From Synergistaceae bacterium (GTDB taxonomy: Bacteria; Synergistota; Synergistia; Synergistales; Aminobacteriaceae), in NCBI GenBank assembly GCA_017540085.1, contig JAFYBQ010000022.1, positions 1 to 53,036 of the forward strand: DNA of 53,036 nt. The letters are read 5' to 3'. Below, piece by piece: positions 15,812-19,212 of this stretch. Below the pieces are notes generated by a model. That model saw nothing but the letters and a program-made list of their open reading frames with translations. It was not told the origin of the DNA and ran no database searches. Every line of letters begins with the position of its first letter. Within the stretch, counting starts at the first letter, position 1. Both the position numbers and the translations under genes were made by a program.

Positions 15812-15900
15812 AATAAATCGCTCCTCATGGAAATTTTTTGCTTATTTTACACTAAATACTAAATCGCAAGAAGACTCCCACTTCTTATAAAGTTTAAGTT

Positions 15901-15909
15901 TGCTATAAT
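15901..15909 (+). promoter_or_regulatory. extended -10 promoter upstream of the mobile element and purB
   Basis: TGCTATAAT on the plus strand, just before the likely left end of the IStron. It points toward purB, whose start is at 17917 beyond the element. Inference: this was the purB promoter before insertion and now transcribes through the element. Confidence 0.5.
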
Positions 15910-15969
15910 TCATTGCGTTGAATAACAGGAATAAAAGAAATTCCGACAACGATATGTAAAAATGAAATT

Positions 15970-16480
15970 GGTACCTATGGGTAACGAAACTGTTACGAAA
16001 AATCTAAACAAAGATTAACAAAGTTATTCAAAAGTATAGATTTAGAACAGAAAACCCTTTGTATCGAGTAATCGGTGCAAACTCAACGTTTAATGCTTTT
16101 AATCCCTAATAGCCATGCTACCTAAACAGTAGTCGGAAACGGCAAGCTGAACGGCGCGAAAGCAGAAAAAACAGCATGGATGGCGCAAGGTGAAATAAAA
16201 CAGATTAGTGTTGATGAATGGTAAATCATACGTGGCACATCAAAAACGTCTGCCCTAAACGCTTTTAACAATGGGTTTTTAGCAGGGAACGCCCTAAACC
16301 CTTTAAGGGCATGGGAGACCCCCAACGACTATCTCCTTGAGGGAGAGTAAAACCGCAAGCCAATGGCGGAAGAAAAATGTTGCCCCGTGAATAACGGGTG
16401 AAGATATAGTCTGCGCTGGCATGAAAGTGTCAGAGGTCTGCTTGTGAGAGTAAGACTGCTATAGAAGTTGCGTTCTATGG
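15970..16480 (+). ncRNA. group I intron catalytic core (subgroup IA-like)
   Basis: Seen in the sequence: S element AAGATATAGTC (16401-16411). P7 pairs GACTAT (16327-16332) with ATAGTC (16406-16411). P3 pairs GGTTTT (16274-16279) with AAAACC (16349-16354). Between P7 and P3' is a small hairpin CTCC-TTGA-GGGAG (16333-16345), like the P7.1 of IA introns. P8-like CCCGT/ACGGG (16384-16398) precedes S. P9 is CTGGCAT-GAAA-GTGTCAG (16416-16433). A P5-like hairpin lies at 16291-16310. Two further pairings lie upstream: GTAAC/GTTAC (15981-15996) and CCATGCT/AGCATGG (16113-16179). The order of P3, P7, P3', P8, P7' is the group I pseudoknot. P1 and P10 could not be fixed. Confidence 0.78.
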
Positions 16481-16561
16481 TGAACAAGATAAATATATAC
16501 AAACTTTACAAAGTTATATAACTCCTTTATAATTATACAAAACTGTAAAGGAGGGCTGTTT

Positions 16562-17182
16562 ATGGAACTAATAAGCATAGGGAAATTTGCTAAAATGGTC
16601 GGCGTTACCCCTACTACGTTAAGACGTATGCACCTTCGCGGTGATTTTATTCCTTACCACATAACGAAAAGTGGGACACGCTACTATTCAATGGAGCAGC
16701 TCAAAGAGTTTTCATCCGGCCCACGCATTTCCGAGAAAATTGTGATTGGCTATTGCAGGGTATCAACTCCAGCACGGAAAGATGACCTTGAAACACAAGT
16801 CCAGAATGTGAAATCTTATATGTATGCCAAAGGTTACAAGTTCGAGATTATTACGGACATAGGCTCAGGCATAAATTACAAGAAAAAAGGACTGCTGGAG
16901 CTAATCAAAAAAATCAATAATCATGAAGTCTCAACAGTAGTTGTACTATACAAGGACAGGCTAATACGATTTGGATTTGACCTTCTGAATTACCTTTGCG
17001 AAATTAACGGCGTGAAGATTGAGATAATCGACAACACCGAATACAGCAAAGAGCAGGAATTAACAGATGACCTAATCCAGATAATTACAGTATTTGCCAA
17101 TCGTCTTTACGGACAGCGTTCAAAGAAAACTAAGAGACTGATTGACGAGATAAAGCAAAATGCTAAGGGCAATCAGGATTAA
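16562..17182 (+). CDS. tnpA: IS607-family serine recombinase (TnpA)
   Basis: Catalyses integration and excision of IS607-type elements. The 206-residue protein has an N-terminal MerR-like helix-turn-helix (about 1-50: IGKFAKMVGVTPTTLRRMH). The recombinase domain follows, with catalytic Ser68 in GYCRVST, the GSGINYKKKGL loop, and KDRLIRFG (131-138). Length and all key residues look intact. GGAGG (about 16550-16554) precedes the ATG at 16562. It overlaps tnpB by 23 bases, the usual arrangement. Since IS607 transposition needs only TnpA, the element could still move despite the tnpB defect. Confidence 0.92.
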   Translation: MELISIGKFAKMVGVTPTTLRRMHLRGDFIPYHITKSGTRYYSMEQLKEFSSGPRISEKIVIGYCRVSTPARKDDLETQVQNVKSYMYAKGYKFEIITDIGSGINYKKKGLLELIKKINNHEVSTVVVLYKDRLIRFGFDLLNYLCEINGVKIEIIDNTEYSKEQELTDDLIQIITVFANRLYGQRSKKTKRLIDEIKQNAKGNQD

Positions 17183-17747
17183 GCTAAATCCCACGCCGGA
17201 ACAGGAGATATTGTTCTGGAAAAGCGCGGGGACAGCAAGGTGGGCATATAACTTTTATCTTTCGGAAAAAGAGCGCGTCTATCATGAATACCTGGATAAC
17301 GGCATGAACGGCAAGAAAGATATTTCAGGGTGCGAAATTAGGAAGTATATTAACAACGTACTGAAGAAGACAACGCACAAATGGCTATCTGAAGTCGGGA
17401 GCAATGTCATGAAGCAGGGTGTCAGGGATGCGGAAGAAGCGTATCGGCGATATTTCAAAGGACTGTCCGGCAAACCGTGTTTCAAGTCAAGGCGCAGAAG
17501 CAAAATCAGCTTTTACGTGAATTACGAGAGCTTGAAATGTATACAGGGCGGATTTCACGGTGAGAAACTTGGTTTTGTCAAAACATCACAGCCATTGCCT
17601 AAACTCCGTAAAGGGCAGAAATATTCCAATCCTAGAATTTCATATGACGGCAAATATTGGTACTTGTCGATTGGATATGAAGTCAAAGAAGAACCTAAGC
17701 CGGAATTAAGCGGATGTAGGGAAGTTACGCCTTTGGAGAGGAAATAA
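17160..17747 (+). pseudogene. tnpB: TnpB with the RuvC nuclease and zinc-finger region deleted in frame
   Basis: TnpB is an RNA-guided DNA nuclease, usually around 370-400 residues. This copy has 195. Residues 1-185 match the N-terminal half: it opens with AIRIKLNPTPEQEILFWKSAG and later has KPCFKSRR and the PRISYDGKYWYLSIGYEV strand. The sequence reaches ELSG, where intact TnpB continues into the RuvC-I segment (GIDLG). Instead it jumps to CREVTPLERK and a stop, which resembles the extreme C-terminus of IS607 TnpB. So the catalytic RuvC acids and the zinc ribbon are gone while frame and tail are kept. No cleavage activity is expected. Whether the fragment is made or has any role is unknown. 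Confidence 0.8.
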
Positions 17748-17821
17748 GACACTGGCAGAACATCGCGGCGCAACCTCGTAGAATTAGGAAGCCTCCATAA
17801 CCGCAAGGGGGGGTAGTTCAC
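17690..17821 (+). ncRNA. omega-RNA-like 3' end of the IS607 element
   Basis: The 3' end keeps a layout that I recall from TnpB guide RNAs: AGGAAGCCTCC, a short loop, GGGGGGG, then TAGTTCAC ending at 17821. It overlaps the tnpB tail. The bases after 17821 (ACTAAACCGCATAG...) would be the guide if this is the element boundary. Recognition is from memory of related elements and was not searched. The 5' end is not defined. Confidence 0.5.
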
Positions 17822-17916
17822 ACTAAACCGCATAGAATCTCCCAATCTTGACGGGGATTTGACGCGCAATTAAAATCATCATCATCACAAATTCACAGCA
17901 CTGGAGAAAATTGCCC

Positions 17917-19212
17917 ATGATAGAAAGATATTCCGAGCGTGATATTTCAGCCTTGTGGGACGAATATAACAGGCTCAAAGTCATGCTTGATGTTGAAATT
18001 GCCGTGTGTCAGGCGTGGTGCGAGCAGGGAAGAATCCCGGAGGAAGCCTTAGAGGACATCACAGCCCACGCAAGTTTCACGGTTGAGCGGGTGCAGGAGA
18101 TCGAGAAGAAGACACAGCATGACGTAGTTGCGTTCGTCAGCGCGGTGGCCGAAAATGTCGGGGAAAACGGAAGGTATCTGCATCTCGGCATGACCTCAAG
18201 CGACATTCTTGACACAGCAAGCTCTATAATGTTACGGGACTCGCTTGACATAATCATTAACGCAGTGAAAGAGCTTGACGCGGAAATTATCAGCCTCGCG
18301 AAAAAGTACAAGCACCTTCCCACGATAGGCAGGACTCACGGAATCCACGCCGAGCCGACATCACTGGGACTAAAATTCCTCAATTGGCACTCGGAAATTC
18401 TGCGCGACATCGGAAGACTCGAATATGCCCGCAAAGACGTATCAGCCGGGAAAATCTCCGGGGCTGTCGGAACATACGCGATGTGCAATCCCAAACTTGA
18501 AGCCCGTGTGTGTGAGCTTCTCGGACTTGAACCCGCTAAAGTCTCAAATCAGATACTTCAGCGCGACCGCCACGCAGGAGTCCTCAATGCCCTTGCGGTT
18601 TTCGGGTCAACGCTTGAGCGCATAGCACTTGAGATTCGCAACCTTCAGCGGACGGAAGTGCGTGAAGCCTTTGAGCCTTTCGGTGTCGGTCAGAAGGGAT
18701 CCTCGGCCATGCCTCACAAGCGGAACCCGGTGAAGTGCGAGCGTATCTGCGGAATGTCGCGGCTTCTGAGGGGATATGCTTTGACGGGTATGGAGAATAT
18801 AGCACTGTGGCACGAACGGGACATATCACACTCAAGCACAGAGCGCGTAATATGGCCGGACGCTTTCAACATTGCGGTGTTCATGACTCGGAGCATGACG
18901 AAAATTTTACGGGGGCTTGTTGTCGATGAGTCCAGAGTCCGCCACAACGTGAACCAGACAAACGGACTCGTGTACTCACAGAGGGTATTGACATTTTTGC
19001 TTGACGAGCTGAAATTGTCGCGTGAGGATGCTTACGCCATCGTCCAGGAGAACGCAATGAAGACAGCTTCAAGCGGGGTGGCGTTCCTCGACCTGCTATT
19101 GAGCGATGAGCGTATGAAGTCTGTTGACCCTGACAGGCTGAAGGCACTTTTCGAGAATGATTTTTACCTGCGCTATGTTGATGAGATTTTTGCGCGTTTC
19201 TTTGCGGAGTAG
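17917..19212 (+). CDS. purB: adenylosuccinate lyase
   Basis: Purine biosynthesis enzyme that releases fumarate from SAICAR and adenylosuccinate. The sequence has HDVVAFVSAVAE and LHLGMTSSDILDTA early, GRTHGIHAEPTSLGLKF, and the signature loop GSSAMPHKRNPVKCE, which carries the catalytic Ser. About 431 residues, usual length. GGAG at 17903-17906 is best spaced for ATG 17917; the frame also opens from TTG 17911. The next gene starts 3 bases past the stop. Its leader region is occupied by the IStron, so expression may depend on splicing or on a promoter inside the element. Confidence 0.95.
   Translation: MIERYSERDISALWDEYNRLKVMLDVEIAVCQAWCEQGRIPEEALEDITAHASFTVERVQEIEKKTQHDVVAFVSAVAENVGENGRYLHLGMTSSDILDTASSIMLRDSLDIIINAVKELDAEIISLAKKYKHLPTIGRTHGIHAEPTSLGLKFLNWHSEILRDIGRLEYARKDVSAGKISGAVGTYAMCNPKLEARVCELLGLEPAKVSNQILQRDRHAGVLNALAVFGSTLERIALEIRNLQRTEVREAFEPFGVGQKGSSAMPHKRNPVKCERICGMSRLLRGYALTGMENIALWHERDISHSSTERVIWPDAFNIAVFMTRSMTKILRGLVVDESRVRHNVNQTNGLVYSQRVLTFLLDELKLSREDAYAIVQENAMKTASSGVAFLDLLLSDERMKSVDPDRLKALFENDFYLRYVDEIFARFFAE

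What the first reader, a model, noticed from the sequence alone, without database searches (positions are those of the whole stretch)
15960..17880. IStron (group I intron plus IS607 element) in a likely Synergistota genome, placed in the purB leader
The 5' part shows the group I order P3-P7-P3'-P8-P7'-P9 with perfect P7 and P3 pairings and the S motif. An intact IS607 recombinase follows. IStrons are established mainly in Clostridia and Bacilli. Here the element lies between an extended -10 promoter (15901) and the purB ribosome site (17903), in the same direction, so splicing out about 1.9 kb would restore a short purB leader.
Basis: partly seen in the sequence, partly recalled or inferred. 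Interest (0 to 1): 0.85.

Follow-up and report, generated by a model that had tools for sequence, protein, structure and literature searches.

The report
Truncated IStron nested in another transposon
A mobile element that joins a self-splicing RNA to an IS607 transposon, of a type known from a Selenomonas plasmid, sits in a Synergistaceae genome but has lost its 3' third, lies inside an older transposon remnant, and probably neither splices cleanly nor controls the purB gene beside it.

Summary
A group IA2-type group I intron is fused to an IS607 transposase at this place, so the core observation is real. Rfam RF00028 matches 16187-16433 at 30.2 bits (below its cut-off), and a five-sequence comparison supports 13 helices with compensatory changes in 25 of 63 pairs. 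The closest named relative is SrISt1 of Selenomonas ruminantium, a known group B IStron (TnpA 82.5% identical). The genome belongs to a genus of Synergistaceae.

(1) Empty-site comparison puts the boundaries at 15982..17713, not 15960-17880; the target TACCTATGGG|ATGTAGG lies inside an IS605-type tnpB/omega-RNA element already in the purB leader. (2) The IStron is 3'-truncated: tnpB keeps about 185 residues, and the RAGATH-18 guide RNA, closing 3' inverted repeat and P9.0 strand are gone, so accurate splicing is unlikely. (3) purB has its own conserved promoter-like site (17848-17876) downstream of the insertion.

New here: IStrons of both known groups in Synergistaceae, a phylum absent from the 2014 survey, and an IStron nested in an omega-RNA locus. 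Overall: a new, partly decayed member of a known kind.

The parts
15850..15981 (+). left part of a decayed IS605-type tnpB/omega-RNA element in the purB leader (exact left end uncertain, near 15850), with a promoter-like extended -10 near 15901
   Evidence: purB-leader orthologues L021 and L031 lack everything between about 15857 and 17814; similar left parts joined directly to the right part in L129, L130, L132, L135, L041
15982..17713 (+). IStron (SrISt1-like, group B), 3'-truncated; inserted at TACCTATGGG|ATGTAGG with GG at both ends
   Evidence: 35 of 44 matched segments read straight across the joined junction; sister copy L014 shares only 15987-17689; SrISt1 starts GGG|TAAC
15982..16486 (+). 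group IA2-type group I intron component, P1 to P9.2 plus GAACAA motif
16084..16090 (+). P3 5' strand (pairs 16376-16382)
   Evidence: compensatory changes at 3 of 7 pairs
16327..16331 (+). P7 5' strand (pairs 16407-16411)
   Evidence: invariant in 5 sequences
16487..16526 (+). 5' arm of the AU-rich inverted repeat that closes IStrons; its 3' partner is missing here
   Evidence: duplex energy about -27 to -29 kcal/mol with the terminal 45 nt in three complete relatives, -4.3 in the window
16505..16533 (+). tnpA promoter-like site TTTACA-17-TATAAT
   Evidence: 11 of 12 matches; TTGACA-17-TATAAT at the same place in L014 and SrISt1 (read)
16562..17182 (+). tnpA, IS607-family serine recombinase, 206 aa, intact
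   Evidence: NF033518 212 bits; PF00239 and PF00376
17160..17747 (+). truncated tnpB ORF (195 aa): about 185 aa of IStron TnpB up to 17713, then host-element sequence; RuvC part absent
   Evidence: NF040570 positions 1-192 of 389; full TnpB of 392 aa in L014
17714..17821 (+). right part of the older IS605-type element: omega-RNA-like 3' end, ending GTAGTTCAC
   Evidence: multicopy across related genomes; the 3' end of full-length tnpB genes in L032 and in three loci of this genome
17848..17876 (+). purB promoter-like site TTGACG-17-TAAAAT
   Evidence: same spacing in L016, L021, L031, L032
17917..19212 (+). purB, adenylosuccinate lyase
   Evidence: TIGR00928 496.6 bits

Best explanation
This is a 3'-truncated member of the SrISt1 lineage of group B IStrons, which join a group IA2 intron to IS607 tnpA and tnpB. 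History, mostly shown by comparison: an IS605-type tnpB element entered the purB leader and decayed to its promoter-bearing left end plus its omega-RNA 3' end. An IStron then inserted into the GGG of that remnant through IS607-type recombination at a GG core. Later, or during transposition, the IStron lost its 3' part. The break joins GAATTAAGCGG inside tnpB to the target, where the native end is CGTAGCGG; the shared AGCGG (5 bp) points to a microhomology deletion or to TnpA using a false right end (inferred). The RNA core should still fold and could attack the 5' splice site (inferred). The 3' splice site has lost the AU-rich closing stem and the CGUA strand that would form P9.0, so exact splicing is probably weak or absent (inferred). 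TnpA could still act; TnpB lacks its RuvC half and its guide RNA, so it should be dead (inferred). purB is most likely expressed from its own promoter downstream (inferred from a conserved site).
For: Intron: RF00028; covariation, 25 of 63 pairs with double changes against 13.6 in shuffles and 0-5 in slid controls. IS607 tnpA. Kinship: SrISt1 TnpA 82.5%, intron 78-79.5% nt; sister copy L014 with full tnpB, RAGATH-18 and right end. Boundaries: empty sites and the purB-leader series L031/L021 empty, L032 with a full IS605-type tnpB, window with the nest. Truncation: no native right end in the window, no RAGATH-18 at 15850-17960 even at E 10, no 3' inverted repeat, P9.0 UGCG/CGUA in relatives, UACG/CGUA in L050, absent here. 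RAGATH-18 RNAs are the guide RNAs of IS607 TnpBs (PMC11061315). Group B signature: insertion after GG, 3' CGG, GAACAA after P9.2, long AU-rich inverted repeat (PMC4227781).
Against: No RNA data, so neither splicing nor its loss is shown. A CGTATCGG motif at 17440-17447 resembles the native 3' site and could serve as a cryptic one. The deletion rests on one fragmented assembly (42 contigs); a misjoin is unlikely with only 5 shared bases but cannot be checked without reads. P9.0 rests on few sequences.
Confidence: 0.85

Rival explanations
1. One reading: an intact IStron at about 15960-17880 that splices from the purB leader and so permits purB expression.
For: The intron core through P9.2 is intact and well conserved; the element is in the direction of purB.
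Against: Empty sites set other boundaries; 3' end, guide RNA and tnpB RuvC half missing; a purB promoter-like site lies downstream of the insertion and is conserved in relatives.
Confidence: 0.05
2. The IStron still splices despite the truncation, using the new end AAGCG|G or a cryptic 3' site in tnpB, and in the first case rebuilds the omega-RNA of the host element, which full-length TnpBs of the same family elsewhere in the genome could use.
For: Core intact; the last bases AGCGG equal those of the native end; three full-length TnpB genes with the matching 3' end in this genome.
Against: The P9.0 strand and the strong closing stem are lost; no sign that the host element is still transcribed or used.
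Confidence: 0.08
3. The short repeats are deletion derivatives of this same IStron (MITE-like), so the element really spans about 15850-17821 and the IStron has not inserted into anything.
For: Both flanks recur together in many copies, and the tnpB frame runs on into the right flank.
Against: The full-length IStrons L014 and SrISt1 do not carry these flanks; the flanks are the end of a different tnpB family present in full in L032 and in this genome; the join falls exactly at the GGG target that group B IStrons use.
Confidence: 0.02

Closest known systems
SrISt1, group B IStron of Selenomonas ruminantium subsp. lactilytica (plasmid pSRC1, NC_017078.1)
   Same: TnpA 82.5% identical; intron 78-79.5% nt; same start GGG|TAAC, same helices, same AU-rich 5' repeat arm with tnpA promoter
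   Different: window copy lacks the tnpB RuvC half, RAGATH-18 guide RNA, 3' repeat arm and native right end; host is Synergistaceae, not Bacillota; inserted in another transposon
G009:C125 / RGIG3217 copy (L014, L043), complete IStron in the same genus
   Same: intron 86% nt, TnpA 85%; GG target
   Different: complete, 392-aa TnpB, inserted in a gene of unknown function
CdISt1 and other group A IStrons (IS200/IS605)
   Same: IA2 intron plus IS with tnpB
   Different: other transposase, TTGAT-type target and TCAG end; group A-like elements are seen in sister genomes (L047, L048), not at this locus
IS607 TnpB with RAGATH-18 reRNA (ISFba1)
   Same: same transposon family; the complete relative L014 carries RAGATH-18 after tnpB
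   Different: no intron mentioned in that paper; the window copy has lost this part

Membership tests
group I intron, IA2 | P3-P7 double-helix core with P4, P5, P6, P8 | tested here: met
   Rfam 30.2 bits, below the gathering score
group I intron, IA2 | P7.1 and P7.2 hairpins; P9, P9.1, P9.2 | tested here: met
   class definition from PMC4227781
group I intron, IA2 | 3' splice site held by P9.0 | tested here: not met
   UGCG at 16412-16415 has no CGUA partner at the element's end; relatives have it
group I intron, IA2 | self-splicing | not testable with these tools
   needs RNA
IStron, group B | IS607 ORF A downstream of P9.2 after GAACAA | tested here: met
   GAACAA directly after P9.2; TnpA NF033518
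IStron, group B | insertion after GG, 3' terminus CGG, no target duplication beyond the core | tested here: met
   GGG|TAAC and AAGCGG|ATG against the empty site GGG|A(C/T)G
IStron, group B | long AU-rich inverted repeat enclosing the ORFs | tested here: not met
   3' arm deleted; this lowers the claim that it works as an IStron; descent from the SrISt1 lineage is still clear
IStron, group B | full-length ORF B (tnpB) | tested here: not met
   only about 185 of 392 residues; the survey saw no IStron with complete ORF A and degenerate ORF B (PMC4227781)
IS605-type tnpB element (host element) | same 3' end as intact tnpB genes and presence at the orthologous site | tested here: met

The most novel reading that the evidence does not exclude
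A group I intron inside a transposon guide-RNA gene: splicing of the IStron would rebuild the omega-RNA of the older IS605-type element and so tie one transposon's guide RNA to another's ribozyme.
Probability: 0.04. Interest if true: 0.7.

Novelty: new member of a known kind. Interest (0 to 1): 0.35.

Why it matters
The 2014 survey found IStrons only in Firmicutes and Fusobacteria. Here both groups occur in one genus of Synergistaceae, and the closest named relative is on a plasmid of Selenomonas ruminantium, which suggests transfer between phyla. The copy is also an unusual natural deletion, with ORF A complete and ORF B, guide RNA and 3' splice apparatus gone, the opposite of what the survey reported. 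The empty-site series shows nested transposons step by step in one promoter region.

Tried and rejected
Rfam at gathering threshold gave no group I hit; only the relaxed search did. RF00028 also missed the complete sister intron L014 at E 0.1, so it is a weak detector for this lineage and comparative folding was used. The snR50, CRISPR-DR35, mir-471 and similar matches and HIV-1_SL4 are taken as chance (below or barely at the cut-off, mostly eukaryotic or viral families). A viral-contig scan for the exact left end found nothing. A search for an uninterrupted homologue of the gene hit by the L014 copy gave only a fragmentary match. L044 (Desulfovibrionaceae) and L045 (Ruminococcus) were checked as possible IStrons: L045 has a gene ending just before tnpA and L044 shows no intron match beyond the tnpA promoter region, so they look like plain IS607 elements. 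The 2024 work on conflict between IStron introns and guide RNAs is known to me only by title and is not held in the library (one search found only papers citing it), so its species range could not be checked.

Full report
Observation. The window holds at 15982-16486 a group I intron component and at 16562-17182 an IS607-family transposase gene. Rfam at its own cut-off reports no intron here, but a relaxed scan of 2.1 kb matches RF00028 along its whole length at 16187-16433 with 30.2 bits, E=2.8e-5. In the whole genome the same place is the better of two weak RF00028 hits. Because the RF00028 match starts downstream of the true P3, the structure was rebuilt by comparison. Five related intron regions (window, G009/L014, SrISt1/L117, L050, L058) were aligned. 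RNAalifold found P2 to P6, P7.1, P7.2, P8, P9, P9.1 and P9.2, including the long-range P3, with 130 pairs, 52 of them with changes on both sides. A named structure of 13 helices gave 98.4% paired cells and 25 pairs with double changes, against 13.6 in shuffles (0 of 500 reach it) and 0 to 5 in slid controls. P7 is GACTA/TAGTC in all; P3 is CAACGUU/AAUGUUG here and CAGUGUU/AAUACUG in SrISt1. P1 across the junction pairs GUAAC with GUUAC (window and SrISt1; only partly kept in the others).

What it belongs to. TnpA is NF033518 IS607 (212 bits). Its best named relative is on plasmid pSRC1 of Selenomonas ruminantium TAM6421, 82.5% identical, in an element with the same left end GGG|TAACAAAACTGTTAC. 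The 2014 survey lists SrISt1 of that organism as a group B IStron with four copies (PMC4227781); that this plasmid copy is one of them follows from the organism and size and was not read from an accession list. A complete sister copy sits in the same genus (G009:C125, L014; identical to L043 from Synergistaceae bacterium RGIG3217), with TnpA 85%, a 392-aa TnpB, a RAGATH-18 RNA after tnpB, and the right end CATATTTATCGTAGCGG. RAGATH-18 RNAs are the guide RNAs of IS607 TnpBs (PMC11061315).

Boundaries and setting. In related genomes the window's flanks recur without the IStron: window 15930-15981 joined to 17712 onward. A query made by joining 15860-15981 to 17714-17860 aligns across the join in 35 of 44 matched segments, reading TACCTATGGG|ACGTAGG or close variants. 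Some of these segments are the same locus fetched twice, and most of the crossing ones start only about 10 bases left of the join, so the longer matches (L129, L136, L132, L130, L131, L135, L133, L134, L041) carry most of the weight. The IStron therefore spans 15982-17713, with GG at both ends as IS607 recombination predicts. The flanks are the ends of a different, IS605-type tnpB element: in G030 (L032) a full-length tnpB of this type lies at the same place before purB, with the same right end GTAGTTCAC; in G004 (L031) and G029 (L021) the purB leader has neither element. This genome carries three full-length tnpB genes of that family elsewhere. The order of events is thus leader, IS605-type element, IStron.

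Truncation. The sister copy and SrISt1 continue from the stretch before RuvC into the RuvC domain; the window instead passes at GAATTAAGCGG straight into the target. No native right end is in the window with up to 3 mismatches, no RAGATH-18 match appears, and the 5' arm of the closing repeat has no partner: -4.3 kcal/mol for the last 45 nt against about -27 to -29 in three complete relatives, where the best-placed partner reaches -29 to -34. The four bases after P7' (UGCG; UACG in L050 and L058) can pair with CGUA next to the native end in the complete relatives, a likely P9.0; the window end reads AUUAAGCGG. The native and the new end share AGCGG, which suits a microhomology deletion or use of a false end by TnpA; the data do not decide.

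Effect on purB. A promoter-like site TTGACG-17-TAAAAT at 17848-17876 stands at the same place with the same spacing in L016, L021, L031 and L032 (TTGACT in L032), with or without an insertion. The scan finds about as many promoter-like sites in shuffled sequence, so it is the conservation that counts. The -10 at 15901 lies in the IS605-type element and a similar sequence recurs with it in L041. purB therefore need not be read through the IStron.

Wider distribution. Among 188 Synergistota genomes only G000 and G009 hold a close TnpA. G003 (L015) and G011 (L020) hold remnants with the same right end. RF00028 finds above-threshold group I introns in G009, G041, G036 and G003; those in G041 and G036 are followed in the same direction by tnpB genes, and TCAG follows the right-end hairpin, the pattern of group A IStrons. 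The 2014 survey had IStrons only in Firmicutes and Fusobacteria; later work could not be checked in full.

Verdict. The finding is real in kind and in host, wrong in its boundaries and in its main functional claim. It is a new member of a known kind, partly decayed, with modest interest as an inter-phylum case and as a nested-transposon fossil.

Noticed in passing
window 15850-15981 with 17714-17821; L129, L130, L132, L135, L041: Many short copies of an IS605-type left end with a promoter-like site joined directly to an omega-RNA 3' end, without tnpB, occur across the genus: apparent solo omega-RNA elements, while full tnpB genes of the family exist in the same genome.
   Followed up: partly
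L047, L048: Group I introns followed by tnpB with short hairpin ends and TCAG after the right-end hairpin: group A-like IStrons in the same Synergistaceae genus.
   Followed up: partly
L046, L049: RF00028 introns above the cut-off inside prophage-like gene neighbourhoods without an IS gene beside them.
   Followed up: no
L015 / L139 (G003:C147): Derivative with full tnpB and the IStron right end but with tnpA and nearly all of the intron deleted.
   Followed up: partly
L020 (G011): Remnant keeping both IStron ends and the region after tnpB but no ORFs, MITE-like.
   Followed up: no
window 17440-17447: CGTATCGG inside tnpB resembles the native 3' end CGTA(A/G)CGG and could act as a cryptic 3' splice site.
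   Followed up: no
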